Both the position numbers and the translations under genes were made by a program. Under the pieces are notes generated by a model. It saw only the letters and a list, made by a program, of their open reading frames with translations. It was not told the origin of the DNA and searched no databases. Shown piece after piece: positions 1 through 62,279 of a stretch of 64,000 nucleotides of DNA. The stretch lies in assembly GCA_025642065.1 (NCBI GenBank), contig JAODUP010000320.1, positions 501,001-565,000 of the forward strand. Direction: 5' to 3'. Source of the DNA: Paralvinella palmiformis. Lineage: Eukaryota; Annelida; Polychaeta; Terebellida; Alvinellidae. Numbering within the stretch: position 1 is the stretch's first letter; the number at the start of each line of letters is the position of its first letter.

Positions 1-88
1 GTGACAGGTGAGGGAGGCGAGTTCTCAACCACTCCAACATAGAGGCTGTGCCGAATAAGCGACAGCCTGAGGAACCCCCCCCCAAACA
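1..88 (+). repeat. SINE-A 3' tail (truncated copy)
   Basis: This matches the 3' end of the full SINE copy at 27592-27950 (read on its minus strand). It carries the shared block GGCTGTGCCGAATAAGCGAC, then CAGCCTGAGG and a C-rich, then CAAA-type tail. The copy is cut by the window edge, so its tRNA-like head is not visible. The same block recurs near 5065, 18360, 27620 and 60720. Confidence 0.75.
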
Positions 89-96
89 AACATTTG

Positions 97-5064: not shown

Positions 5065-5107
5065 TTTGGCTGTGCTCAGTCAGCGACAGCCTGGGGTAAA
5101 TCCCCAC
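5065..5107 (+). repeat. SINE-A 3' tail fragment
   Basis: Contains GGCTGTGCTCAGTCAGCGAC, then AGCCTGGGGTAAATCCCC. This is the SINE-A tail with its GGGG/CCCC hairpin intact. Confidence 0.6.
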
Positions 5108-5502
5108 ACTACACACACGTACGAAAAGAGAGAGAGAGAGAGAGCAATTCAGACTTAACCAAATTAAGTAGCTGGTACAACAAAACACTCTGTTTACATT
5201 GTAGTCAAAACTTCATCCCCGTCTACTATCTAATCAATCGTCTTGCCTCCCCAGCCTGCCGACAGCCTCTTAAACCACTTCTAATGCCTGCACACAACAC
5301 AACCTAACCGACACAGAAAAACAGCCATCATAATACACAAAGTCACAGCCAATCCACACATAATACTCCCCTTGTTTAAAAAAGACCCATACATCCGACA
5401 AAAACCAAACAAAACACAGTAAATCTTTTGTAAAGGTTCGGCACTGGTCAGTCCGAGTCCGGAACTTGACAAATTCATTTTCAGAAACAGAAGCTCCACG
5501 GC

Positions 5503-5609
5503 GAAGTCAAAGATGAAACAACTTTCAGATATGTCCACGCCGAGATTCGAACCCAGGTGGTAGTGATATGTAGTCCAACACGCTACTGCTAGACCACGGA
5601 GGCGCCCCT
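5503..5609 (-). mobile_element. SINE-B, 3'-truncated copy
   Basis: The minus strand reads the tRNA-like head (GCGCCTCCGTGGTCTAGCAG, B-box GTTCGAATCTCGG) and the start of the body through GTTGTTTCATCTTTGACTTC, then the match stops. The body beyond is missing. Confidence 0.75.
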
Positions 5610-5818
5610 GTGGAGGTGTAGGATTATGTTTGTTTAGATGTATGTAGGTTTGGGTTTATATAAGAGTAGCTTTGTTTACGTTTTATTGAGATTTGACCTT
5701 TTATGGATGTTTCGGTCTTGATTACTTGAGCAATACTATCATAATATATATATATATATATATATATCCTAGAATACACACACCCACGTACGCACGCGCA
5801 TACTCACACGCAAACATC

Positions 5819-8014: not shown

Positions 8015-10953
8015 ATGGCCAATATGTGGAAGTGTTGCTGTATGGTGGCTTCGGTGCTGGCAGTGTCAGACGTGCAAGGTGAACAAATAGACGCCGAAGT
8101 GCTGTTTATAAAGATATGACAGCGTATATTTTGCTTGCATTTATCACGTATTTCGCTTTTTAATTTAACACGCATGTAACTTCTAAATGCCTATCGTAAA
8201 TGTAAATCATAGATTGAAAGGTGATGTTGTAAGAAGCAACTGGGTCAAGAAACCAGGAAGCGTCGCTCTAGATTTGCTTCTTTTTCACAAACAGAATACA
8301 AAATATAGACATTTAGATATTATAACAAAAACAAAACTGGCAAACTTAAAATACGCACACACAGGTTAGCGTTACACGAGTGGTTAGTACACGTTACTGA
8401 TGGTGTTCTATTTGTCGTTCTACAGCCAACCTCTGTCGAAGGCGCAACGAGGTATTAGATTGTTCCAATTCGACAATGCGTGGTATGCTGAGTGGCGACC
8501 AGCTGGGGAACATAACGGAGCGAGAACAGATAACTGTCTTAGATCTATCCTGGAACAGCATAGTTTCAATAAGCAACGAGACGTTCAGATGTCTTCCAAA
8601 ACTAAAAACGCTCTCTTTGTCTCACAACCGGATAAATTTTAGCACGACCTATTGTCCATTCCGATGTTTATCACGTCTGGAGAATCTTGACATCAGCGAC
8701 AACGTCGTTCCAAGCGATGATCCATCGCATGCAGCTTTATTCGGAAACTTATCGAACCTGTTGCATCTGACAACCGATGGCGTACCGCCTTCATCTCTGC
8801 CTACTGGCCTGGCCTCTCTCGAAATGCTGAATCGCTTAACCGTGAAAGGGAATCTGGTTTTCCTTTCAAACCGAACCTTCAGTGATTTGCGAAAATTAGG
8901 GATAAAGAATTTGGCCATAAAATGCAGTTGCCTGACTCACATCGAAGCCGGTGCCTTTAGGGAACTTTCTTACCTGGAATGCCTCGAACTGCACGATTTG
9001 CCCTTTCTCAAGCTGTCCTCGCTGGTCGGTCCATGGACTGGATTGGGTCAGTCGGTTCAGTCGCTATCTCTGTGGCGAGTTGGCGGTCTGACGAGAAGTC
9101 CAATGGAGCCGGTGACGGTGGAAGAGGAGTTCTTCCGCAGCCTAAGCAACACCGGGCTGAAACGTTTAGAAATGGACGACAACTACATCACGCTGATACA
9201 CCTGACTCATGTCTGGAGGTACCTCGGCGATCTGGAGTACTTCTCGCTGGCTTATAATTCGCTGATCCAGCTATCGCCTTTGGCCAACAGCTTACAGAAT
9301 CTTACAAAGCTTAGGTATCTGGACGTCAGTCAGCAGTATCGTACATCGTTCATGACAGGGCCAGAATTTTATATGCGTGACTGCCGTCACCTGTTGAAAA
9401 GGTTTTCGCCTCCTCTGTCAAACGTACGAGCCCACGAAGGACCAACGCAATCCAAGATAATCGCTTCTGATACCGATACGAATTCCCTACACATCTACTA
9501 TCCACCGGCCTTGGAATACTATAATATCTCGTTCGCCCTATTTCAGACTAATATGTACGAGTTGCACATACACCAGGCGGACAATGTAAAGCTGCTCAAC
9601 GTAGCAGGCAACCGAATAAAGGTTTTGGGTTCGAAGCTGGTCTTTGTCGACAAGCCGAAGCACGGAATTACGATGGATGTGAGCGGAAACGAGATAATCA
9701 ACATCTCGTATGGCTATTTCGACCTGAATTCCACCGCCACCGTCATAGAAAGGCTGATCCTACGCGCCAACCAACTAGGCGACATAATGGCTCGTATAGG
9801 CTGCGATTGCATCAGCAGTTTAAGAAATCTGAAGCACATAGATCTGTCTGACAACCGGATAAAGACGCTGCCATTTAACACCTTCCATCGCATGGACCTT
9901 TTGGAAACCATAAACGTCGGCAACAATTCGATCAGAAATTTCGACCTCTCACTCAGCGATCACATATCGCTGAAGCATCTCGACCTCTCCAACAACCTCA
10001 TACAGCAGTTCGGTGGGAAAATGATGGACAAATTGGAATCGTTGGCCGAGCGCCACAATTTGACGATCAGCCTTCTCGGCAACCCGCTCTTCTGCAGCTG
10101 TCACACGTTGACATTTCTGCGCTGGGTGAAGCGACACCGAGACGGGGGCAGGATACGGTTTGACCATTTGGACAGTTACACCTGTCTGTACGGAGGAAAG
10201 ATGGTCTACTGGAAGGCGCTGGATGGAATAATCGCCGACATCCGGAGCGAATGCGACAAGAACTTGTATATCAAGGTTGGCTCGTCGCTGGGGGCCTTTG
10301 TCGTCTTGGTGTTTGCGCTGTCGATATTCATCTATCGACACAAATGGGACATCAAGTTCTGGCTGATCGGAAGGGTCATCGATAGAAAGGCGAAACGCGA
10401 TGAGGCCGAGCGGGGTGTGGTCAGATATCGCTACGATGCGTTTGTCTCCTATCACCAAAAGGACATCGAATGGGTGATAGGAGTCTTACTGCCGGAGGTG
10501 GAAGGCTGCGAGGCAAACCAAATGCGCCTGTGCCTGCATCATCGAGACTTTGAGCCCGGGGCCCCGATCGAGGAGAATATCGTGCAGAGCATCAAGAACA
10601 GCCGGAAGACGCTTCTGGTGGTCAGTAGACAATTTTTGACCAGTCATTGGTGCCACTTCGAGATTCAGATGGCCCGTACGAAGAGTTTCGACATCGGTCG
10701 CGATGTCATTGTCCCGATACTGATAGAGCCGGCTCTGGAGATTATGAAGGATCCGAACCTATCTAAAACGCTACTAAATATCTTTAGAAGACGTACCTAC
10801 TTGGAATGGCCGAGCGATCCGCTCGACCAGGCGGCCAGGATAGCGTTCAGGGACAGCCTCCATCGGGTGTTGCGATGTCCCATCTCTAGGCGGATTCGAT
10901 GTGAATGCGGACGCTCCGTTTGTCCTTCGCCAGCAAGTCATCGTTTTTTGTGA
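8015..10953 (+). CDS. Toll-like receptor (single cysteine cluster), two exons
   Basis: Cell-surface or endosomal innate-immune receptor whose TIR domain recruits MyD88-type adaptors. I place exon 1 at 8015-8078 (MANMWKCCCMVASVLAVSDV, a signal peptide; donor G|GTGAAC) and exon 2 at 8426-10953 (acceptor CTACAG). The join restores phase and gives 863 residues. The alternative is a start at ATG 8476, but that drops the N-terminal cap (LCRRRNEVLDC), and an in-frame stop at 8398 rules out an unspliced longer start. About 17 leucine-rich repeats follow, then one membrane-proximal LRRCT cap (NPLFCSCHTLTFLRW), a transmembrane helix near residues 640-660 (GAFVVLVFALSIFIY), and a TIR domain at about 691-838 with box 1 YDAFVSY and box 2 LCLHHRDFEPG. 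The single LRRCT is typical of V-type/scc TLRs. The ligand cannot be inferred. The gene appears intact. Confidence 0.92.
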
Positions 10954-17183: not shown

Positions 17184-18338
17184 TTTTAGCGCAGCTTGCT
17201 TTAGCATCAATATCACATTGGAACTGGGTTGCGATTTTGTTTTACTGATTAATTTAGATTGCATCCATTGTTCTTGAGATGTGTCTGTGTTTACGAACAA
17301 TCTAAAATCATACGAGACTGGCCCCAAATATACGCATAGGTCGATTATTGGGATGGACCGAAAATAGGAAATTAATTGATATAAAATATTGCATTTTGGA
17401 TTTTATGTGATTTCCCTATTTCTTTGAATTTAACACAATATTGCTATGGTAGTATATAGTCAGTGATTGGTCAGTGATGGTATAACTGTCAGCTTCGGCA
17501 AGTGTTCGAATTGTGAGATGTTTGCGCATAAGTTGCTTACATCCAACGTGCAGAGTACACGGGTATACTGATGCTGAATTAAAATTGTATATTTGGTGTC
17601 GTAAAAGTGCGAGCTGCAGTAAATAACTGCGCTTCGTGCACATACAAACACACACATTGTTTACTATTTTGAGACCTTGTCATGTTGAACTTATTTTAAC
17701 AACATCAGTTGCAAGTGACTTTCCTACCGAGTAAATATATGTGTCGCCTTATTCAAAGGTCAAAACGACATAGATATAAGCAATTCAGAATGTTGCGAAC
17801 TTGGCTAACCTAATGATTGGCAACTAATTGTTTTGACTAATTGTTTGCTAAATTGACTAATTCAAATTTAATACCCTTGTCAAAAGATTATATGTAAATG
17901 AATGCTAGAGAAATCCTTAAACCCGGCGTTTTCAATTATAGTTCAAATAGATCACGTGGATGGGCAATTTAGTTTAGACAAATCTCACCTAACTGCATAT
18001 ACTAACGGAGATTAAATTAAGCGTGATGAACGTTACCTTATGGTGATTAGCTGTTAGGTTTGAATAAATTACAGTATTTATTCAAGATTGAGGCGATATT
18101 TCGTTCTAGTCCAGTCCAGTAATAATTCATTGAGGATTTTTGCTTCTTTATTTTTGCTTAGTTCTTCATCTGCTTCTATATGTAGGAAGAGTGTGCACAA
18201 CACAAGTTTGTCACATGTTCAATTCAAGTTGTGATGTTGGCTAACGCGCCGAGAGCCTATAAAAGGCCTAACTTTTCATCCTGATGAGACTACAACTTGC
18301 GATACCGAACCTGCCTGACTTGTTACTTGTTGAAAATT
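17184..18338. other. Intergenic, nothing recognised
   Basis: AT-rich sequence without a recognised element. Minus-strand open frames at 17416-17657 overlap one another in different frames and show no motif. Confidence 0.4.
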
Positions 18339-18380
18339 GGGGTGGAGACCCCCTAGCTGTCGCTTATTCGGCACAGCCAC
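18339..18380 (-). repeat. LINE 3' terminal block shared with SINE-A
   Basis: On the minus strand it reads GGCTGTGCCGAATAAGCGAC, then AGCTAGGGGGTCTCCACCCC. The first part is nearly identical to the SINE-A tails, and the second forms the same GGGG...CCCC hairpin. It lies at the 3' end of the LINE, where the element's own reverse transcriptase would bind. Confidence 0.7.
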
Positions 18381-21234
18381 ATGGTGTAGACTCCTGTTGT
18401 GTCTTTGTTGTTAATAGGGGTCTTTCAGGAGAAGTGGGGCGATAATGTCTGGTCGTTATGTTGATTTTCTTATAATCAATGATGCTAGGTGATGATGATA
18501 TGAGAGTTTGTAGTCTTCAGGGAGGAGATCACCTTTTAGTCTTCTTCTGTACATCGTGGGGGGACGGGGAGTTGACCAGATAAGGTACAGGGTTGTGTTT
18601 GTTGATAGTGAAGGCAGAGTGCTAGGGATGACGGGCGGGTGAAGTTGACTGTGTATGACCAGAAACGTAGTCGTCTGAGTTGGATGTCGGCCAGTCTCTT
18701 GTTAAGGAAGTTATGTCCGACTATAGTGGTGGTCTGGTACCAATCCTCGCATCATGATCCGTGGTCTGTGTAGGTTGATTCGAGTTGATTGAAGACGAAC
18801 ATGTCGATGGGATGGTTGAATATGCCAGGGTTATATTCATCATGTTCAATCACTTTTAGGCACGTGGCTTTGTTCGCTAGTTGGTCAGTTCGGTCGTTGA
18901 CCTCAAGGTTAACGTGGCTTTGAACCCAATAGATTTTGACTGCATGCAACTCAGCTAATGTTATCGGGGTGTGGTTTGGGTTTATGCCTCTGATTTATTT
19001 GTCTGTTTTTTTAATGAAACATGCCCAGGATGGGGTTCCGTTTCCTTGGAAGCAAGCATCGGTGTAGATGCTGATAGTTGGTGTGTTACTTTCATTGAAG
19101 TTAGCAATTCTGGTTGTGGCTGCTATTGCTATTCCTTCAGGATCAACTTTCTTCTAGATAGGGTTCTGTATGATTACTTGAATTGGTGGTTCTAACCATG
19201 GAGCAGGTTCGTTGGACCTTCGGATGTGATTAGAGGTATGCCAATTTCCTTTCTGGAGCCAAACTGCCCTAATTTACCATGAGACATCGTTAAAAACTAG
19301 GATCTTTTTGTATTTCTTCTTGAACTCTGTCTACAATGTCGGTTTGAATGGGTTTGGAAGCAGTTCTTAGGAGATATGTAATTGTTTTCTTTTTTAATAG
19401 AAGACGGATGGTGGTGATTCCTGATTATCTGTATACCAAGATGCAGCTTACTTCATTGGGAAGGCCCAAGATGTATCGTAGTGATATTCTTTATATTCTT
19501 TCTAATGACTGTAAGGCTGAGTTGCAGGCCATTAGGAGGACGGGAACAACATATAATAGAAGAGACTGTATCAAGGACTTGCATAGAGTCATGAACAACT
19601 TGGTGTTGACTCTCATATTCAGATTTGTGATGGCCTTGATCAGGTTGAATGGTGGAGTCTACTTTACATTTAATTTCTGCTACATGGCGGGCGAAGGCGA
19701 GGCGAGTGTCTATATTTGTAATTGTTGACCATTTTCAGATTTTGCTGGACGAGGTTAAACTTATGCTGACTTTATCTAGATATGTTGAAGGCCGTGGTCT
19801 TGGTCTAAGCTGGGGAGAAGTATAAGCCTAAGCCATTGGCTGCCTTGTCTACTGCATTTCGGGTTTTCTGGAGTTTTTGTGTTGGGCTAATTCCGTATGA
19901 AATCAGCACAAGGTCATGAGACAGGGGCACTGTCAGGAGTAGGGCGACAAGAGCATTAAAGAAAAGGGCGACTGAGTTGATTCCTGGGGACATCCAGTGG
20001 TGAAATCATGGTGTCGGAAATGGTTCCTTGGAACTTTACATTTATATTTCGGTTTGTTAAGAAGTCTTCTATCCATGTGATAATCATAGCAGGTAGATAA
20101 GGGAATCCAGCATGGAGAGATGATCTACGCGCTCAAATGCCTTGTCCAAATCTACGAAGGCGACAAACTCTGGTTTGATTCTTTTGGTGCTTTTTCTAGC
20201 TGTGATCTTGGTTACTAAATGAATGGTAATGTCCAGAGTGGATCTTTTGTCTTGGGTTTTTCCACAGAAGTCTCGCTAAAATAATTTTCTCCATTATTTT
20301 AGAGAGGATGGACAATGGGGATGACTATTGCCATCTTCCATCGTTTCGGTAGTTTTCCTTCAGTCCGCGATTGGTTGAATAAATTGAGCATTCTCTTCTT
20401 AAAAGAACGGGGGCTTGGGTATAGAAAGTGTGGGGAATGCCATCCTAACAAAGGGTTGTCTTTCTGCATCTTCTAAGCACGGTCTACAGTTCGTGAAAGG
20501 TAAAAATCTTGTTTCTATCCGGATGTTTCTGTTTTGCTGTTGCTAAGTTGGATTGCCTTGGCTGTGGTGGTGTTCTTGGGTAGAGTAGTCTGATCAACTC
20601 GTGTCGTGAAATCATCAGCGAGTCTGTTAGCTTCATGTTTATGATTGACAGTTTTGGATATTTGAGGAAACCCTTTTATCTTTTTTGACTTAATTTCAGC
20701 TAGTTTGTTGCGCCATATATCACGCTGTTGTTTATGTTGAATATTTTGGCGAGTTGTCTGACTTATTTAGTCCATTTTCTGGCTTCTGGAGGGAGGGAGG
20801 GAGGAAGGAAGGATAGGGGAGATTGGGTGGTCTTAGTTTTTTTTATATGGGTCCTGCTGCCATGTATATGTTCTGAAGTAGTAATTGCAGGCGATGCTCA
20901 AGTGATAGATTTGTGTCTGGGTCTGGATCTGGACATTATCTTAATTTCTCCGCAAAGAGATCCCAATTTGCTTTCTCTGTAATCCATCTTGGTGGTGTAT
21001 TGATTCTTTGGTGTATTCTGCAATGAGCTGATTGTATCAATGCTGTTAGCTATGTGATCCGAGCTGAGGCTTTCATTTTGGTGACAATGTGTAGCTGTGA
21101 ATAGATGCAGGAACACAATGACTAGATCCACTGAATAGCCCTAAACAGTGGCTGGAACATTTGGATCGTTTATCACGATGTTATCGGATCTATTTAGTTG
21201 GTCAAATAGATGACGTTCTGGTATGGTGACGAGT

Positions 21235-21326
21235 GGCATTGAGGTATCCTGCTAGAAGAAAGTTGTCGGCGTCTGTTGTTGGCATTGAGGTCTCCTGCTA
21301 GAAGAAAGTTATCAGCAGGTGCTGTT
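21235..21326. repeat. 46-bp tandem duplication inside the LINE endonuclease
   Basis: Two adjacent copies starting GGCATTGAGGT at 21235 and 21281. 46 is not a multiple of three, so the duplication shifts the reading frame across the conserved LLAGDLNA motif. It is visible directly in the sequence. Confidence 0.85.
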
Positions 21327-22000
21327 GCTAGCTCTAAGTCAAACAGGTGTTGTGGGAAAACGTATGTTTTGTTCTTGGATCGTTGTACTGTTATGGTTAG
21401 AGTTTATCAGTCTTTATTTGGTATGTATTTGGGGTGGGAATATGTGGTACGTCGGCTCTGACTGCTGTGGTGATTTCTCTGCCAACTGTAGGCGAGTTGA
21501 TTATTCTTGGTTTGTTGTACACAATGTACCCTGGACGTTTTGGTGGGTGAACGTTCTTAGTGAGTGTCTCCTGAAGCATGGTGATTTCTGGATGACTGTC
21601 CTGGATGGTGGCTAACAGGAGATTTTTGTTTGATTGGAAACCTCTAATGTTCCAGGGGATAATTGTCACGTTCCCTGGGTTGGTGACTGGGTTGCCAGTT
21701 TCGACGATATTCGTGTTGTTGGCAAAGGGATTATTTTTTCTGTGGTTTCTGTTGACTTTTGGGGGCAACCTCAGACGATGATATGCCACTGTCTAGGACT
21801 GAGTGAAGCATCTGATCATGGGGGGTTGATTTTTCATCAGCATTTAGGACCTCCTTTGCCTTGCTGTGCAGCTGCTTCAGTAATATCTTGAGGAGTTCAT
21901 TGATGGTGTCCGCTGTTTTCATCAAGTGACTCGTGTGAGTCCGTACTGTTTATATAGGTAAGATTATTTTAGCTATTCAAAGCCAGAATGAAACAGAGGA

Positions 22001-23843: not shown

Positions 23844-23962
23844 TGCCCCGGGTGAGGATCGAACTCACAACCTCCGCATGTCTCATAGCGGCCACCTCAG
23901 CTACTGCTGAGTATGAATACTGACTATAAGTACGGCGCGCTAACCGATTGTGCCACCAGGGC
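23844..23962 (-). tRNA. tRNA-Ile (anticodon UAU) with 45-nt intron
   Basis: On the minus strand a complete cloverleaf can be drawn. The acceptor stem GCCCTGG pairs with CCGGGGC (one T-G wobble) and the discriminator is A. The D-arm is GCAC-AATCGGTTA-GCGC, with one A-C mismatch. The anticodon stem CCGTA pairs with TGCGG (one T-G wobble) around loop CTTATA-A with anticodon TAT. The T-arm is GTGAG-TTCGATC-CTCAC. The intron (23924-23880) sits between positions 37 and 38, the canonical place, and eukaryotic tRNA-Ile(UAU) genes are known to carry introns. The mature RNA is 74 nt before CCA. The perfect stems and T5 terminator distinguish it from the tRNA-derived SINE heads nearby. Confidence 0.9.
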
Positions 23963-24956: not shown

Positions 24957-25022
24957 GCACTCTAGCAGGGTATTTAGGCTCCATCTTTCCATACTGCTCC
25001 CCTATGAGTAGTGAGGGATGAG
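24957..25022 (+). repeat. SINE-A internal fragment
   Basis: Contains CATCTTTCCATACTGCTCCC followed by a GAGTAGTGAGGG match to the middle of SINE-A (27670-27715 read in reverse). The GGCACTCTAGCAG upstream matches its CACTCTGGCAG. The tail is missing. Confidence 0.65.
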
Positions 25023-25946: not shown

Positions 25947-27331
25947 ATAACCTGTTGTAGACTAGACCTTTATTCAGTATTGTTGTTTAAGATCTTTAAA
26001 TATTTATCATTTGTATGTGCTAGCAGTTTGTATTGTAATAAGAGTCAGTGGCTGTGGGTGATATTTGTTTCACATGGATAAAATCATATTACTCACAGTT
26101 CATTTCAGCAAAATATTACAAAATCTGTGATTAGCCGGTTGTACAAATCATCACATCTTGCTAATACAACAACAAAAATGATGTACTTAATTAACAGTCG
26201 TATTATGACACATAAATGGGTATTGTGTGTAAGTGAGCAAATCTATTTATCAGTCTAATCTTGTTTTACTTAGAAAATTAAACACTGCTTAATAACTTAA
26301 TCCATACATTGTATGGATTTCTTAGTGTTTGAATTATAGCTTAATTCATATTTGTCTTCAAGTCATGGCTTGTCAAAGAATGTTGATTACAAAACAAAAT
26401 CATGAATTTTTATACTCAAATGATTTCTTGGAAGTGAGAATGAATCCATAAAAAAGCGCTTCATATACTAGGATTTTGTGGGCAGTTTACTGTTTGAAAA
26501 CGATATTCTGGACAGTACAGTCTTTGGTGAATGTCGCTTTAAATGAAGGAAAACAGTTTCCGCAATTATATTTTCATTTGACTGTGCAATCTGAGTACTT
26601 CATATTTAAATACTGCAATCTTAATAAATAACTTTTGTGACATTATATACTCGTAATTGGAGAAGCTTAAAACATCTGTGACCTTCATTAAGATCTTTCA
26701 CGTTGAACCATATCTGGCTTTCTTGTGTTAGGAAGTGTGTTGTGTTTTGCAGGTTCCTGTGGCTTGAGATGGCACAGATGATGTCCACTTGCAACATGTT
26801 TATTCTATATTTTAATATAAAATAGAGGCTGTGTGGAAAAATACACAATTTATCAATCCTGACATTTGCAAGTGATACATGTCAAACATAGATAATTAAA
26901 CATTCCTAAATGCATAGGATGAAACATGATAATTAATCCTTAGCCTCTAGGAAAAATCAGTTGGTTTCTCCATCTCCAGCTGAAGTATTTCATTTGCACT
27001 GGGGTATTGAGGGGATCCAGAAGTCATCAGTTGGTCATTTCCTGGAAATGTAACATACTTCCCAACAGACTTAGTAATTTGGTGTCCTGAATTAAAAATT
27101 TAAATTATTTCCAAGATAATGGATTTAAGGGAAATATTAGTGTGCTTGTGAATATGGGGCATTTATCTATATCATAAGTCTGTCCAGCTGTGATCTTGTT
27201 GTAAAGGCAACCAGCCAGCCCAATTGGTTCATATGGTGGCAATTTCAGCTAGACAGTTGATGGTTTAATTAGTGGGATTCACCATTGTGTGCTATAATCA
27301 TGGTTGTAAAGAGATCACGATTTAGTTTTTA
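25947..27331. other. Intergenic, nothing firm
   Basis: Mostly AT-rich with no recognised gene. The minus strand at about 27089-26954 has a short open stretch (ITKSVGKYVTFPGND and on to a stop) that could be another part of the transposon whose BED finger lies at 27332-27457. This is a guess from position and orientation. Confidence 0.35.
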
Positions 27332-27457: not shown

Positions 27458-27591
27458 TATGAAGTTGCATGTATATTGATAAATTACAAACTGTAAACTA
27501 CACAATACTGTACTCTCAAATGTTGCAGACTCAGGTTTTTTGTTTATGGTATGTATTCAACATTAGATAACTATCAATAGTAAATCTATGT

Positions 27592-27950
27592 TATTTTGTT
27601 GTTCGGGGAGAATCCCCAGGCAGTCACTTATTCAACACAGCCTCTATATTGGAGTGGTTGAGAAACCTCCTCCCCCACCACTCACAGGGGAGCAGTATGG
27701 AAAGATGAAGTCGAAATAGCCTGAGGGTGGTCACTGCCAGAGTGTTTTACATTATTAGGGGGTCTTTAACATCCTCCTTTATTTTTAATAATTCAGTAGT
27801 AACGGCAGCACCATATAACGTGGTCAGCCACCCACGATGTTGTGAGCCAAGAAATTAATCCCTGGAAAGTTTCGACCTCTTGCTGGGATCGAACCTGTGA
27901 CCCTCGGCACCAAGTGCTGGGTGCTTAACCGCTTGGCAACCGAAGCTCAC
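27592..27950 (-). mobile_element. SINE-A, full-length copy with target duplication
   Basis: A 359-bp element flanked by identical 14-bp duplications, tagtaaatctatgt (27578-27591 and 27951-27964). On the minus strand it starts GTGAGCTTCGGTTGCCAAGC GGTTAAGC, an A-box-like tRNA head. The B box GGTTCGATCCC follows near 27893-27883. A unique central region comes next. The tail is GGCTGTGTTGAATAAGTGAC, then TGCCTGGGGATTCTCCCCGA and a short A/C-rich end. The head resembles a Ser/Leu-type tRNA. The tail matches the 3' end of the LINE at 18339, suggesting that LINE family mobilised it. RNA polymerase III transcription is expected from the A and B boxes. Confidence 0.88.
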
Positions 27951-27964
27951 TAGTAAATCTATGT

Positions 27965-29425
27965 GAATGCTCACCTTATAAAATATACCCATCCTGGCTA
28001 AATGCCAAGTCCTTAACATCAACTCGGTCATCCCCTAAAGAAAAGAAACAAATAAGACTTCACACCATCCACAGAGTCATCCAGTTATAAACATATGCAA
28101 AAATAATTATCTAGCATAAATAACAATTGATTTTAAATAGCATTTCATTTTTTGTGTTGCCAGTTTATTTAATAATGGATCAGTTTATCAGAATTTTGTG
28201 ACAAGTTTTGGTTGGTTTTTGAATGCAGGTTGCCGCTTTGCTTAAGATGTTCTTTGGCTATCTGATTGAATGAATGGCTGCTCATCACGATCATGGCCAT
28301 TGTGTGTGTGTAGGTGGCCAGCATTTCATCCATTGTGATATCACTATGGCAGGAGTTGTTTTTCCCAGCTAGCTAGCAACTCCAAATTGGTGAGCTTTTC
28401 TCTTCTGGGTAAGATATCGGTGCTAAGGAAAATATTACGAAACTGTCTGACATTGTGTCCTATGTTGTTAACTTGGGACAAATGTAGAGGTAGGGAAGCT
28501 AACGAGGCAAGCACAGCACGTGAATGGCAGTGTGTGGGGGAGCGCTGTAATGTACGTTTGTCGCAATTTAAAAAAAATTCTTAGTTCCTCAGAGCGATTT
28601 TGAGATGCTTCAGACATAACGTGATATCATTTTTGTTCATGTGGGACGAAATATCAATACGAGAACATCAAAAAGTGCACTCGATATACTTTGGTCCTTC
28701 CAAATCCGTGTAAAATACAATGAAAATGTTAGGAACTGTCTCAGTACCGTTAATTCCAGTGTACGTTTGGTTTGATACAGGTGGGTATGTGCTAAAATAC
28801 GGAAAAATAAGTATTATTGTTGAATAGTCCTCGGATATTTAGACAGACGTTATAGTGATAATTTCCATAACACTGAGATATATCCTAGATGTAAAATATG
28901 TTCTGAGTTAGTCCTTATGAGACATCATTAAATCATATATCATCCGTCTCTTAATTACTCTTATTCAAATCAGTTATCATAATCTTATCTGACACTGACA
29001 AGATCTCTTGATCTGTGCTGCCTACCAACGTGTTTGTACTTAACCAATGTTCTGCTTATCAGGTGTCTTTAAGTAGCTACATCCAGTAGACTCTCATAAA
29101 CACATCGTATGAAATACTGCCGTGACAGATTTGTTCTGTGATGAACTAGCCCATGGGCAGAGACATCTTTGCAAGGAGGTGTTGATGTGGCATCTCCAGT
29201 TAGGTTCCTAGGATGTTTGCCACTGATAGCTGGGCATAGTCACTACACATAAAAAAACAATGTATCATACATTGTACGGAAATAGCTTTACTGGCTGATT
29301 TTACTGTGAAATCATATTGTAAGTGTTCCAATGTTCTTAGAATAATTAGCTTATGATTTTAATGTAAACCATTATCTAGTTTTGGCACAAAATGGCCTTT
29401 GGTTGCCAATGTTAATTGTAATAGT
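27965..29425. other. Intergenic, upstream of TMF1
   Basis: No recognised coding sequence. 28480-28570 is locally richer in CG and could be near a promoter or 5' UTR exon of TMF1, but I cannot identify a start site. Confidence 0.35.
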
Positions 29426-33084: not shown

Positions 33085-36000
33085 ATGAGTTGGTGGAATA
33101 ATACTGGGATCAGCAGCCTGGCCTCTGTTGCCCTGAAGACAGCTCAGAAACGTATAGACAAAGTGTTAGATATACAAGGAGAAGATGGTGAGTTTAGTCG
33201 AGTGTAGTATTATGTATGAAGACGTGAAAATATTTTTGCTGAAAAGTTGTATTCATGTAATTTATAAAATTGTGCAATTATAATAATAATATAATTAAAA
33301 TTATAATGAAATGTAATGCAAGGGGTGCAAGCTGTATTTGATCTTTTAGTTCTTTAGTCATCTTTAATATAGGATGTGTTATATGATCTTTAATTCTTCA
33401 TTCATTCAGACAACAGTTCACCGCCTCCAGTGCCAACAAGTTCAGAAGAAGTCAACACTTCTCCAACATCCACGGACAGTCCAGCGGAGGACAGCGAATT
33501 TTGGAATAAATGGATGTCGACTGATAAACTGTCTTCCCTCAGTTCTAAGGTCAAAGCCAAGACTGCTAGTTCAGGAGATGAATATTTGGCAGAACCTGGT
33601 GCAGAAAAGGGAACCTTTTCAAAGGATTTCTTTGCCAGCACACTGTCTGCGTCATTGTCCAAGGCTCAGAACCTTAAAGGTATCGGTAGATCTAGCATCT
33701 TGAAGTTAAGGTCACAGTCATCAGCCAAGATTTCTGAATCTGACATCCAAGGTGAATCAGAGCAAGAAAGGGATGATGAAGCAAAGCCATCTAGCAAAGT
33801 GATGAGTGGCTCTACTGAAGTGGGACTCGCAACAGGATCTTCAGAAAGCTTCACTGATGATCATCATCAGGGAGATACCAAAGACTCGGAATTGACAAGT
33901 ACTAAGGTTCCTGTTACAGAGCCACTAAAGATTATTGTTTCTCTGGCATCACCTCAGGTATCCACATCGGGTGGCAGTCTGTTAGCGACTGGGGTTGGAC
34001 AGACAACAGATGTAGGAGACAGACAGTTGGATCATGGCATCACTGAGACATCTGTTGAGGATCTTTTAAATGAGCCCGACGATGCACCATCTGGCTGGGG
34101 TGATGTTAGCCTCAGCATTCTCACTGAAAGTCAGGCTTCATCTGTATCCAGCACAGCTGGTGAGACATCCGAAAGTACAACTCTCATCAAAGAATCCACA
34201 TCAGCAGACATCTGTGATAAACCTGTAGATGTGATTGGTAGAGATGGTGCAGAGAAAGAGACCGCTGGTCCCCTTCCAGATTTACTGGCTCCCAAGCCAG
34301 TGCTCTCTGTGGTGGAGGTGGAGGCAAATGCATGGGATATTGCTGAACTGACTGATTCTGCTCTTGATGGTGTCGCTATAGAAGGTGAGCAGGTCAGTGT
34401 TAAAATTCAGCAGTCTTCTGGAGAAGCTCAAATAGATCAAGCTAATCTGAAGACTGCTGATAACCATCAAGTACTAGATGATGATGATGATGGTGAGAAA
34501 ACTAGGCATGAGACACAGATAACAGATGATTTGAAGAGTGTGGATGAGATACAAATAGGAGAGGATGTAGAGACTACAAGTGAGAGACAGATAGAAGATG
34601 ATGATGTAAAGACTCCAGATGAGAGACAGGTAGAAGGTGATGTGGTGACTGTTGGTGAGAGGCAAGCTGCAGACATGTCGGATTTGGATGATGCCGAATC
34701 TTCAAAGAATTCCGAACATCAGCCTGCTGCAGATCAGTCAGATTCTAGGACTGTAGAGTCTGATCAGGAGGCAGCTTCACTCATCATTCAAACGGAAGAG
34801 ATGTCTTCCAGTCTGCAGAGATCTGACGAGGACACAACAGATACGACAATGCAGGATGTGATGGATGGTATTAGTACAAGAGAAGCGTCATCAATGGAGG
34901 GCAGCACAGATACGCAGGATGAGCTGTCGAGCAGTAACCGCACATTGACAGCTGATGAATTTGATTCAGTAAAGGTGTCCTCCGGATCTTCTCAAGTCAT
35001 CCTGGCAATGAATCCAGATGATGGCCATACTTGTGATGAGACAGTAACAGAAAGGACCATACCGGAGCAAGCACCTGCTGGGGATTTGGTGAAGGAGACT
35101 CCAGAAACAAAAAAAGAAAGCTTGCCAAAAGATGAGGCACCTGTAGTGAATCAGGAAGGCGGAGCCAGAGAGAATCTCACGTCAAGTAGCTACGTTAAGA
35201 ACATGTTGGAAGAGGCCATGGTGGAGAGCATGAAAGACACAGATTCGCACACCGATTCACATTCATCTTCTGACATGGTTAGGATAGAGTCAGGCCCGAC
35301 CAGTGGACACACTTCTGCAGATGAAATAGAGACGAACACATCTTCTGACATAGAGATCATCTCTCACATATCAACACCAACGCCAAATGGTGAGAATCGA
35401 CTGTTCGACCTATCTCCACTCCGGCATGCACTCAGTCGGACGATGCACCGGAACAGCCCTCCAAGTCACAAGAGGTCGGACAGTGGCTCCAGTAGCCAGA
35501 GTCGCAATGGTGACGAATTGGTGTCGCCGGATGGTGCCCAGAAGGCAGGAATTCTGACCAGGCAGATGACGCAAAGAAAAGAGAAGAAAGATGTAAAAAA
35601 AACAGAAGAACCAGGTCAGTTCCTCAACTCTTAGTCGTATTCACCATTTTACATACGACAAAACTTTTACTCTCTCTCTGATCTCTCGTTTTGCTGCATC
35701 TCACTACTGTAGAATAGAAAGTATACAATTTTAGTCAAAGATATTAATTATGTTTCGCTAAGAAGTAGTCATAGACCCTTGGTGATATGTGCAAAAAGAG
35801 TTCTTGAATATGACTTTCTGTGAGACCCACTTAAACTAGGCACCCATCGGATATGACTCATTTTGTCTATCAGGTATGTAGTAATTCTTACCTACTACAC
35901 ATTTTGATATAAAAATCCCATATATATATATATAGATAGATATATAGATATATGCATAATACAGAAACAGGTATAGATATGATACAGGAACATTCTAAAA

Positions 36001-60000: not shown

Positions 60001-62279
60001 AACACAGCAGTCAAACAAATAAACATGACAGAGAAACCCACCATATAAACAAGACCAAGTGCTTTTATTTACTGTAAACAAAGACAACTGGCCAAGCAGG
60101 AGAGAGTATTTGAGTCACATCATCATCATGCAACATGGACGTTTACCAGCCAAGATCACTAGCTCATCAAAATCTCTCCCATCCTTCAAGCACGTTCCTT
60201 ATATTCAGTAAATATTTATAAATATGACCACTGAAGTCGTTACAGCAGTATATTGTGGCATTGTTTCAGATCTGGAAACTATTGGATGATAAATATTTGT
60301 CGTTTATCATGCATGACCCATTTTCTGCTGAAAATAGGTCCAAAATCCAGCCTACAGTTGGGAACAGTACTTTTTAGCGATGGTTGTTGAGGTATCGGCG
60401 TAGATGTTTTAAACTATGATACTTTTTTTCACCATGAAGAGCTCCAAAACAGCGGAAAATCATTCTATGACAAATGAACTAGAGACTAGAGCATATCTTG
60501 CCTCAAAATGGCAGTAGCCCGGTCAGGTTAGTGACTACTCACTAGCCAGAAGACAAAATCCACATGTACCGGTGTCTGGGCTACTGATTTTTCAGCCCTG
60601 GAGCAGTGCCATATTGCTTTGGTATCTCTGTATGAGGTAACATTGTCATTGTACGAAACAGAGGATCTCCTGCACCATTCTGATTCACTGGTGCAGCAAA
60701 GGCTTTCAAGCACAGAGGCTGTGCTGAACAAGTGACAGCCTGGGTATACTCTCCGAAATACAAGCATGCAAGCTGTGTGCGGCTAAGACAGTGTCAGAAC
60801 TACGTAATGGTTGGCAGCTCTGAACTCTACGTTGCTGAGTAAAAATGAACAAAAGCAAATTTTCAAAAGGATACAAATCAATGTGACCTAATCCACAGAG
60901 ATTCTGGTTTAAAATGATAACTGACCAATTTCTACGGACATAATTCTAAATTCATTTTAGGAGGAGAATGTCTATAAATTGAAAACAACATTCTGTTTAT
61001 GGTGAAGGTACTCTGAATGTACTATGAAAGTATGAGTACTTCATGAATGTACTCAAGTAAAGTACTGAGTACTTCCTGTTATGAGTACAGAAGTACACCT
61101 GAGTACACATAAGTACACCAAACTGTCTACGAGTACATCAGCCCAACCCTGCTAACAGATCAACCAGACAGATTTCATGTAAAGTTCACTGTCCATTTAC
61201 GCTTTAAGAAAATGTCAGTTCAAATGGTCTTGACAGTTAGATTTATTCATATTTAAGTCATTAGTGGTGTTATTTTGTTAAGTCATAAATATATTATGTG
61301 TATGAAAGAGATTTTTGACCCATACTGCCAACAACTGAAACAGAATGAGCTATCCTGATTAAGGTCACCTGATTTTTACAAGGCTGTAGAAAGTCTGACA
61401 TTTATATGAAATTCAGTATTTCATGGTTCCCACAGCCAAGGAAATGTTATTTTCTACAGCTATACTGTTTAGTCAGGTTTTTTGTTCTAAGTGGATTTTT
61501 TGAAAGGCAGTATTTTTGTAAAATTCAAGGACATTTCCTGGACCTGGAAAATGAATTTCTTATTTTCCAGGTTTTCTATAACACATGGGAACCCTGATTA
61601 TTTGTAAAGCTGCACGGCTGTTCTATTTCTTTGATTTTTGTTTGTATCCCTTCAAAACTATGAAAAGCATCTTCTACTTTCAACCCAAATGTAACTACTA
61701 CGTGTTCGGCCGCCATATTTGAGCGGAAGTAACAGCCAACGAGGAATAACTGGCGCATGCACATTGAGTGGTTGGACCTATAACCCTGAGGTACAGGGTT
61801 CCAATACTCGGATATGAAACCACTTCGTTTTTACAAACATGGAAATTTTTCAATAGAATTATAAAATTATCATACAATCTGCTATTCACCCAAAATTCGC
61901 TTATATGAATGTATTAACGCTCGGGGAATGGTGTATAGTATTTCCGGTAACGGCCCAAACAGGGTCTCCACCACTGGCACCAGTAATATATTTCATACTT
62001 TTTTGGTAATTTCAAACGTATTAAAGTACATGCAGTCAACGAAAGACACAAGTGGCACTAAAACAATGAACAGTTATTGACAGATCAACAATCCTGAAGA
62101 ATTAGTGACCTCTCTGGTGACATTGCACTGATTGCATTTAAGATTCGAGACAAGTACCTTGAAACAAACATGTCAGATTTTGCTTTGAATGCCCGGTAAG
62201 CTTCTTTCTGATTAGGTGGCACTCGCTTAGCTAGTGCCGCCCAATCAACAGCTGACTTTGCTACACGTTTCGATGACAT
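54036..62279 (-). CDS. ATP5PD: Mitochondrial ATP synthase subunit d, five exons
   Basis: Subunit d is part of the peripheral stalk that holds F1 still while F0 rotates in the inner mitochondrial membrane. Exons in order of translation: 62279-62158, 59126-59030, 58606-58529, 56395-56333 and 54194-54036, all GT-AG with matching phases. The 172-residue product is close to human (161). Family landmarks are KSAVDWAALAKRVPPNQK (residues 8-25), LPKIDFAYYRSRI (49-61), MVDQFEKAYQAVTIPYPKD (66-84), EDMTHQMYVDYFPD (131-144) and the C-terminal PTFWPHLKKD (154-163). The start ATG is at 62279. An in-frame stop follows soon after the first donor, so splicing is required. It is convergent with TMF1. No defect is seen and the gene should be functional. 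Confidence 0.95.
55642..56000 (-). mobile_element. CR1-like LINE, 5'-truncated 3' end
   Basis: In ATP5PD intron 4, same strand as the gene. The minus strand reads FSIAVLTVWNSSGEHVK and then ..SFCQDLKPHFFSLAYPS, the C-terminal end of CR1/L2-type reverse transcriptases (..FSVxAPxLWNSLPEH..LKTxLF..). The family 3' UTR and a (TTA)n tail follow. Internal stops are present. Confidence 0.75.
57906..58215 (-). mobile_element. CR1-like LINE, 5'-truncated 3' end
   Basis: In ATP5PD intron 3. The minus strand reads YVPRVKTHA, then after a frameshift FSVVVPNLWNSFPEHVKSSN and ISFCHHLNTHLFRLAYPSI with a stop, followed by the same 3' UTR as at 55642 and 17052. This is the best-preserved C-terminus of the three copies. 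Confidence 0.8.
58822..58844. repeat. Perfect 23-bp palindrome
   Basis: AGTAGGTACTC-C-GAGTACCTACT: two 11-bp arms around one base, in ATP5PD intron 2. A smaller inverted pair (CTACT-CAG-AGTAG) lies 10 bp on. It may be a tip of the GTAC-rich element type seen at 61010-61150. Confidence 0.8.
60711..60756 (+). repeat. SINE-A 3' tail (diverged copy)
   Basis: Reads CAGAGGCTGTGCTGAACAAG, then TGACAGCCTGGGTATACTCTCC. The ~150 bp before it (60560-60710) is vaguely similar to the SINE-A body, so this may be an old full copy. It is antisense to ATP5PD. Confidence 0.6.
61010..61150. repeat. GTAC-rich degenerate array ending in CAACCCTG
   Basis: About ten GAGTACTT/AAGTACA motifs spaced 8-15 bp apart, followed by CAGCCCAACCCTG. 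Such subterminal arrays next to CAGGGTTGG-type termini are typical of some hAT elements. The other end was not found. Confidence 0.45.

What the first reader, a model, noticed from the sequence alone, without database searches (positions are those of the whole stretch)
18339..18380. SINE-A and an RNase-H LINE appear to share a 3' end: a SINE/LINE partner pair in one window
The minus-strand LINE at 18339-21930 ends in GGCTGTGCCGAATAAGCGAC plus a GGGG...CCCC hairpin. The 359-bp SINE at 27592-27950 ends in the same block and hairpin (GGCTGTGTTGAATAAGTGAC, TGGGGATTCTCCCCGA). AAAGACCCC-type sequence upstream of the tail is also similar in the two. SINEs are known to borrow the 3' tail of the LINE that mobilises them. 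Solo tails at 1, 5065 and 60711 keep the block, and the 5065 copy keeps the hairpin, as expected if it is the recognition signal.
Basis: partly seen in the sequence, partly recalled or inferred. Interest (0 to 1): 0.75.

Follow-up and report, generated by a model that had tools for sequence, protein, structure and literature searches.

The report
LINE and SINE sharing tail, target
In this animal genome a self-copying gene parasite (a LINE) and a short parasite that probably rides on it (a SINE) carry the same two-hairpin RNA tail, and most sampled copies of both lie about 30-40 letters downstream of a TATA box, where gene reading starts, some of them in front of histone genes.

Summary
The LINE/SINE end match was reached by 0 of 20,000 shuffles. 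In the window's own genome, LINEs of three families (best copies 99, 52 and 43% identical to one ORF2 protein) end in this tail: 27 elements in 25 of 28 loci examined. SINE-A ends in it too, with duplications of 8 bp or more in 25 of 30 copies. Its closest tail is LINE family B, not the window's family-A-like copy; a family-B fragment does lie at 5151-5506. Beyond the finding: both kinds insert at a fixed distance downstream of TATA boxes. A TATA match starts 31-40 bp upstream in 22 of 30 SINEs, 7 of 10 held-out SINEs, 11 of 18 LINEs and 6 of 7 held-out LINEs, against 117 of 720 background bins. Three LINE copies end 47-75 bp before histone start codons. SINE/LINE tail sharing is a known kind; a LINE targeting RNA polymerase II start sites looks new. 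No unrelated SINE could be tested as a control.

The parts
18319..21928 (-). Degenerate 5'-truncated LINE copy, family-A-like (APE endonuclease, RT, RNase H remnants; many stops and frameshifts; middle of RNase H and part of the 3' UTR deleted)
18355..18378 (-). LINE tail, stem 1 (GGCUGUGC..GCGACAGCU)
18339..18353 (-). LINE tail, stem 2 hairpin (GGGGG..CCCC)
18319..18338 (-). LINE 3' terminal stretch ending CAACAAGTAACAAG, like the (ACAAG)n end of family A
21948..21956 (-). TATATAAAC, start 28 bp upstream of the LINE's homology start
27592..27950 (-). SINE-A, full length (head with box B-like GGTTCGATCC, body, LINE-type tail)
27619..27642 (-). SINE-A tail, stem 1
27604..27618 (-). SINE-A tail, stem 2 hairpin UGGGGAUUCUCCCCG
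27578..27591 (-). 3' target-site duplication of SINE-A (ACATAGATTTACTA)
27951..27964 (-). 5' target-site duplication of SINE-A (ACATAGATTTACTA)
27974..27987 (-). TATATTTTATAAGG, start 37 bp upstream of SINE-A
1..90 (+). 3' end of another SINE-A copy, cut by the window start
5068..5109 (+). Diverged tail with both hairpins, element not assigned
5151..5506 (+). Fragment of LINE family B: ORF2 C-terminus (KDPY) and 3' UTR, 83.6% over 329 bp, broken off 15 bp before where the tail block would start
60714..60763 (+). Tail of an unassigned element (stem 1 good, stem 2 weak)
24966..25022 (+). Fragment of the SINE-A body (86% over 57 bp)

Best explanation
SINE-A is a non-autonomous element mobilised by a lineage of RNase-H-bearing, APE-endonuclease LINEs (at least three families, A, B and C, in this genome). 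SINE-A RNA ends in the same two adjacent hairpins as the LINE RNAs, followed by a short family-specific terminal repeat. The LINE reverse transcriptase most likely recognises this 3' structure and starts target-primed reverse transcription from it. The same machinery is steered to RNA polymerase II start sites: where both are clear, the target duplication begins mostly 19-24 bp downstream of the start of a TATA box, and the element ends up 31-40 bp downstream of it, in the orientation that the TATA box would transcribe. Shown by sequence: shared tail, true 3' ends, duplications, shared TATA-anchored target. Inferred: RNA recognition of the hairpins, mobilisation of the SINE by LINE proteins, and recruitment by TBP or the initiation complex.
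For: Tail on 27 LINE elements in 25 of 28 loci whose ORF2 match reaches residue 1100 or more. Exact LINE duplications of 10-15 bp in 8 of 19 loci; SINE duplications of 8 bp or more in 25 of 30. Window LINE contiguous with its tail. Stem 1: 98.7% of cells paired over 19 sequences; both stems 95.6%, against 37-61% when slid; one two-sided change (family C, U-A to C-G). Fixed-distance TATA: 22 of 30 SINEs (0 of 20,000 re-anchorings reach 22; 3' side 3 of 30), held-out SINEs 7 of 10, LINEs 11 of 18, held-out LINEs 6 of 7; background 117 of 720 bins. Histone targets: LINE A between a TATA box and the ATG of an H2A gene, duplication GCTCGCTATCAGTTA; LINE B before an H3 ATG, ACCAAGTTTTCGCA on both sides; LINE B 3' end 47 bp before an H2B-like ATG.
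Against: Covariation does not exceed column shuffles (242 of 500 reach it): the stem varies too little. Stem 2 is short or misaligned in several copies. The SINE loop (UGAUUAA or UGAAUAA) equals none of the three LINE loops, and the terminal repeats differ (AAACC, ACAAG, CAAG, CAAAA-like), so the exact partner family may be unsampled or have diverged. 11 of 40 SINEs and 8 of 25 LINEs lack a TATA match in the bin. The motif is partly palindromic: the reverse strand gives 15 of 30 in the same bin. No unrelated element of this genome could be tested as a control (10 unanswered calls, 107 to 129). The -40..-31 bin was chosen from the first SINE profile, so only the held-out P values are clean. LINE sites are not all independent: L041, L045 and L078 share one repeated target. 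The copies are the best-scoring ones, not a random sample. In L044 the 5' side of the LINE is not the promoter of the gene at its 3' side.
Confidence: 0.85

Rival explanations
1. The block at 18339 is a separate SINE or solo tail that landed by chance at the end of the LINE; LINE and SINE are unrelated.
For: Unassigned tails exist in the window (5068, 60717), and one LINE (L037) is nested in such a tail.
Against: The window LINE matches family A through the 3' UTR into the tail; 27 LINE elements in 25 of 28 loci carry the tail.
Confidence: 0.02
2. The tail is shared by descent only: SINE-A acquired it long ago from a LINE, but was mobilised by some other LINE.
For: Loop and terminal repeat of SINE-A match none of the three sampled LINE families exactly.
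Against: SINE-A and the LINEs share a rare target, a fixed distance from TATA, which points to the same integration machinery.
Confidence: 0.1
3. The TATA signal reflects DNA shape (bendable AT-rich DNA, TA microsatellites or nucleosome phase) and not promoter recognition.
For: Two LINE flanks are TA repeats (L037, L054); the motif is partly palindromic: reverse strand 15 of 30 in the same bin, and TATAAA[AGT] forward in 26, reverse in 19 of 40.
Against: The main peak is one 10-bp bin on the 5' side (22 of 30; the next bin has 10); the 3' side has 3 of 30; dropping SINE flanks with TA runs of 6 or more units removes none of the 40; three LINEs are at histone genes.
Confidence: 0.2
4. The block is conserved for protein coding: read in one frame, the window LINE gives ..MWLCRISDS* through it.
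For: The frame is open through the block in the window LINE.
Against: The three intact ORF2s stop 6-14 residues after DPY, before the 3' UTR.
Confidence: 0.01

Closest known systems
Stringent-type SINE/LINE pairs (58 SINEs, Table 1 of Ohshima 2013, PMC3747384; passages and that table read), e.g. eel UnaSINE1/UnaL2
   Same: SINE shares the 3' end sequence and a stem-loop with a LINE, followed by a short terminal repeat
   Different: Two adjacent hairpins here; the LINE carries RNase H; a shared promoter target in addition
SINE pairs whose LINE is named I, Tad or Vingi: mosquito Gecko with I-74_AAe (MosquI), Mg-SINE with MgL/MGR583, SINE2-1_BG with Tad1-24_BG, Anolis SINE2-1 with Vingi-2_Acar (same table); butterfly Flambeau with R1 (PMC6685494, passages read)
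   Same: LINE tails borrowed from clades that I recall as RNase-H-bearing or close to the I group
   Different: That table lists no mollusc pair; I saw none of these described as promoter-targeted
Dictyostelium TRE5-A (non-LTR; about 47 bp upstream of tRNA genes; ORF1 protein binds TFIIIB proteins including TBP) (PMC5911963 passages, PMC5391098 abstract)
   Same: LINE integrating at a fixed distance from a transcription complex that contains TBP
   Different: Pol III genes and an L1-clade LINE there; TATA boxes, histone genes among the targets, an RNase H LINE and a SINE here
R2, R1 and U2-targeted LINEs (R2 and Utopia seen in search listings only; R1 recalled)
   Same: Target-specific LINEs, some in multicopy genes
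   Different: They cut one defined sequence (recalled); here the target duplications differ in sequence and only the TATA distance is fixed

Membership tests
Stringent-type SINE/LINE pair | SINE and LINE share the 3' end sequence at the true 3' end of both | tested here: met
Stringent-type SINE/LINE pair | Stem-loop in the shared tail | tested here: met
   only one two-sided change, covariation not above shuffles, stem 2 short in several copies
Stringent-type SINE/LINE pair | Target-site duplications on the SINE | tested here: met
   25 of 30 copies with 8 bp or more
Stringent-type SINE/LINE pair | tRNA-derived Pol III head | tested here: inconclusive
   Box B-like GGTTCGANCC is in the sequence, but Rfam gives no tRNA match on the SINE at E up to 1
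Stringent-type SINE/LINE pair | SINE moved in trans by the LINE through the tail | not testable with these tools
   needs a retrotransposition assay
I superfamily of LINEs (RNase H bearing) | APE endonuclease, RT and RNase H in one ORF2 | tested here: met
   P0002: PF14529/PF03372, PF00078, PF00075
I superfamily of LINEs (RNase H bearing) | ORF1 with CCHC zinc knuckles | tested here: inconclusive
   CX2CX4HX4C-like stretches visible by eye in the ORF1 of L043, no Pfam match
I superfamily of LINEs (RNase H bearing) | RT phylogeny placing it in a named clade (Nimb, Ingi, I) | not tested
   no reference RT library on hand
TRE5-A-like, transcription-complex-targeted LINE | Fixed distance from a promoter element | tested here: met
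   TATA match at -40..-31: 17 of 25 LINE sites, 29 of 40 SINE sites; no unrelated element as control
TRE5-A-like, transcription-complex-targeted LINE | Contact with TBP or its complex; Pol III targets; L1 clade | not tested
   no binding assay; the named targets seen are histone genes, so it works like TRE5-A but is not filed as a member
R-type sequence-specific LINE | One defined target sequence | tested here: not met
   target duplications differ between copies

The most novel reading that the evidence does not exclude
A LINE lineage, with a SINE that rides on it, integrates at RNA polymerase II start sites by docking on TBP or the initiation complex at TATA boxes. Each new copy is thereby placed under a ready-made host promoter, and SINEs are seeded into promoters. 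It would be the Pol II counterpart of TRE5-A and Ty3 targeting, with histone gene promoters among the targets.
Probability: 0.6. Interest if true: 0.92.

Novelty: new variant of a known kind. Interest (0 to 1): 0.85.

Why it matters
SINE/LINE pairs are usually argued from tail likeness; here a second, independent mark, the insertion target, ties the SINE to the LINE lineage. If the TATA targeting is real, it is a LINE that picks Pol II start sites. That could explain how 5'-truncated copies are still transcribed, would make these elements natural probes of promoters in this genome, and could suggest an RNA-templated insertion tool aimed at promoters. It also makes an open question testable: does a LINE endonuclease read the host transcription complex rather than a DNA word?

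Tried and rejected
AAAGACCCC likeness: rejected. ORF2 coding through the tail block (MWLCRISDS): rejected once intact ORF2s were seen. Template jumping between LINE A and SINE-A at L037 as direct proof of a shared enzyme: rejected, because the LINE has its own 13-bp duplication inside a pre-existing tail. L054 (LINE A joined to a full SINE-A, no duplication found) stays open. Covariation as proof of the hairpins: not strong enough. Three scans of viral contigs found nothing; one of prokaryote contigs gave 25 pattern matches, none a relative. The 734-aa window ORF did not name the species. SINE central-domain families (V, Meta, MESC and others, recalled) could not be compared; the MetaSINE and Matetovici 2016 papers are not held. 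That the host is a mollusc was my early guess and is not shown.

Full report
What is in the window. The minus-strand LINE ends in GGCTGTGCCGAATAAGCGACAGCT followed by a GGGGG..CCCC hairpin; SINE-A (27592-27950, minus strand) ends in GGCTGTGTTGAATAAGTGACTGCC followed by TGGGGATTCTCCCCG. End-anchored, the match scores 30, reached by 0 of 20,000 shuffles. Over the whole SINE against 401 bases of the LINE end, 2 of 1000 dinucleotide shuffles reach it, and one further unexplained place of the window (near 26,780-26,840) scores as high against the SINE end. SINE-A has a perfect 14-bp duplication. The five window tails fold into two hairpins or parts of them, z-scores -1.6 to -3.7; the second hairpin is lost or weak in two. 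The upstream AAAGACCCC likeness is chance.

Identity of the LINE. The window copy is broken by many stops and frameshifts. A read-through used only as a query found P0002 (52% identity), P0003 and P0004, intact ORF2s, among 7 proteins at E 0.001. Pfam finds EN, RT and RNase H in P0002. P0002 matches loci of the window's own assembly (594 Mb, 2597 contigs) at 99%. Of the 30 loci returned, five (L031, L032, L042, L043, L044) carry the match from residue 1 to 1187-1198 with no stop. P0002, P0003 and P0004 end 6-14 residues after DPY, so the block lies in the 3' UTR.

LINE 3' ends. Of 30 loci, 28 have a match reaching residue 1100 or more of P0002; 25 of these carry the tail beyond it, on 27 elements, because L045 and L049 hold two each: family A 18, B 7, C 2 (the tails of L035 and L041 are damaged but recognisable). 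L051 diverges first, L052 runs off its locus, L054 has a full SINE-A in place of the tail; L039 and L055 have no C-terminal match. Family A ends ..GGCTGTGCCCAATAGGCGACAGCCAGGGGTTCCTACCCCAAACTTCAACAAG(ACAAG)n, family B ..ACTCCACCATAGAGGCTGTGCCAAACAAGCGACAGCCTGGGGATACTCCCCGAACTACAAG(CAAG)n, family C ..AGAGGCCGTGCCCTACAGCGACGGCCTGGGGTATAAATTCCCCATAAC with an A- and C-rich end (one copy; the other, L056, breaks off inside hairpin 2). Exact duplications of 10 bp or more were found in 8 of 19 LINE loci; 4 more gave 7-9 bp, which may be chance, and 7 gave none. The window LINE aligns to family A from 21928 to the tail with an internal 3' UTR deletion; its last segment is 82.6% identical over 86 bp. 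This refutes the idea that the tail at 18339 is a separate insertion.

SINE-A. One search gave 4992 first-look candidates, of which 40 were scored; apart from the window copy these are 89-91% identical to it. The 30 fetched copies reach from position 1 or 2 to 355-359, and 25 of 30 have duplications of 8 bp or more (the 23 bp given for L022 is odd). They mostly end CCCCGAACAACAAAACC(AAACC)n or the like. Tail likeness to the SINE consensus, gaps left out: family B 60 of 74, A 54 of 72, C 53 of 71, window LINE 52 of 71. Family B also shares ACTCCAMCATAGAGG up to the block. A family-B fragment is in the window at 5151-5506 (83.6% over 329 bp); it breaks off 15 bp before the tail block.

Structure test. 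On 19 aligned tails, 95.6% of cells pair, against 37-61% when the partners are slid; stem 1 alone pairs in 98.7%, stem 2 in 89.5%. There is one two-sided change (family C, U-A to C-G) and otherwise one-sided G-U changes or unpaired cells. The covariation score does not exceed column shuffles (242 of 500 reach it), so the structure is conserved but not proved by covariation. Stem 2 is shifted between families and short in several copies.

Target. LINE 5' flanks showed TATA-like boxes. This was then tested on the SINE set: a TATAWAW match with at most one mismatch starts 31-40 bp upstream of SINE-A in 22 of 30 copies; the other 10-bp bins from -300 on hold 1 to 10; the reverse strand holds 15 in the same bin, the motif being partly palindromic. 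Random re-anchoring reaches 22 in 0 of 20,000 trials, and the 3' side has 3 of 30. Ten further SINE copies of the same search, fetched afterwards, gave 7 of 10. For LINEs: 11 of 18 first-set sites (their own background bins hold 61 of 408, summed) and 6 of 7 later-fetched sites, anchored on the start of homology (8 stretches fetched; L076 dropped because the LINE starts outside it). Background is 117 of 720 SINE bins; binomial P is 2.3e-4 for the held-out SINEs and 1.1e-4 for the held-out LINEs. The bin was chosen on the first SINE set, so its own P (6.6e-12) is post hoc. Where a copy has both, the TATA-like word lies mostly 19-24 bp before the start of the duplication. Both window elements fit: TATATAAAC 28 bp before the LINE's homology start, TATATTTTATAAGG from -37 before SINE-A.

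Histone genes. In L031, LINE A lies between a CATATAAAAG box and the ATG of an H2A gene, about 75 bp from the tail, with a 15-bp duplication; a second histone gene, by its sequence H2B, is divergent on the other side. In L043 with L071, a long LINE B copy with a 5' UTR lies 59 bp before an H3 ATG, with ACCAAGTTTTCGCA on both sides and GATAAAG upstream; an H4-like ORF stands further upstream. In L044 the LINE B 3' end lies 47 bp before an ORF that starts like H2B and breaks after some 30 residues; its 5' side is not that gene's promoter. Pfam scored the histone fold in L043 and in both L031 genes; the names H3, H2B and H4 are recalled from the sequences. All three LINEs are co-oriented with the gene at their 3' side. 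Several other copies (L041, L042, L045, L047, L049, L078) share one repeated target containing GGTAACGTTAG, which in L041 and L045 has TATATAAAC upstream.

Mechanism. Most likely, ORF2 protein binds the two-hairpin tail of its own or of SINE RNA, nicks DNA near a Pol II start site and primes reverse transcription there. The distance from TATA to the nick, about two turns of DNA, is too long for an APE endonuclease to read by itself (inference), so recruitment by TBP or the open promoter is the simplest account. TRE5-A, whose ORF1 protein contacts TFIIIB proteins including TBP, is the closest precedent (PMC5911963, passages read; PMC5391098, abstract read).

Novelty. SINE/LINE tail sharing is long known, and pairs with I-, Tad- and Vingi-named LINEs are listed (PMC3747384, Table 1 read). 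A 2023 bivalve survey says LINE donors are known for only three of eight bivalve SINE families (PMC10294476, passages read); whether this host is a bivalve is not known here. Searches for LINE targeting of TATA boxes, Pol II promoters or histone clusters (listings read) showed me no such case in the open-access library; subscription papers and Repbase were not searched.

Limits. The species is not known; clade names were not tested; copies were the best-scoring ones, not a random sample; some sites share a target; no unrelated element served as control; no experiment shows mobilisation.

Noticed in passing
L031 789-1160 and 1237-1287; L043 5180-5695; L044; L071: LINE copies inserted 47-75 bp before the start codons of histone H2A, H3 and H2B-like genes, co-oriented; contig C1800 holds histone genes with both a LINE A and a LINE B copy.
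   Followed up: partly
L041, L042, L045, L047, L049, L078: Several LINE A and LINE B copies at one and the same repeated target (..GGTAACGTTAG..), preceded by TATATAAAC in L041 and L045; the repeat is not identified.
   Followed up: partly
L037, L038, L040, L041, L052, L058: Several family A copies start at nearly the same point (position 1843-1851 of the L032 reference): a recurrent 5' truncation or a short subfamily.
   Followed up: no
L054 1509-3508 (LINE-oriented coordinates): LINE A, cut before its tail, joined within 11 bp to a full-length SINE-A; no duplication found; possible template switch.
   Followed up: partly
L036, L045, L049, L057 and window 5068-5182: A tail directly or closely followed by a 5'-truncated LINE in the same orientation, as in end-to-end template jumping or nested insertion.
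   Followed up: no
L011 1983-2033 (-), L040 5036-5086 (+): Another repeat family with a different body ending in the same kind of tail (loop UGAUCUA or UUAUCUA, CAAG-like end).
   Followed up: partly
window 26780-26840: ATAGAGGCTGTG-like stretch that scores as high as the LINE against the SINE end; chance or a decayed tail.
   Followed up: no
window 5512-5616 (-): A second tRNA-like SINE head (GGTTCGAATCTC) next to the LINE B fragment; wanted as the control family, but the search did not complete.
   Followed up: no
window 23844-23962 (-): Rfam tRNA match over 119 bases, probably an intron-containing tRNA gene.
   Followed up: no
window 8476-10953 (+): 825-aa ORF with leucine-rich repeats and a TIR domain, like a Toll-like receptor.
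   Followed up: partly
window 33430-35634 (+): 734-aa ORF with no Pfam match and one distant database relative (P0001, 34%).
   Followed up: partly
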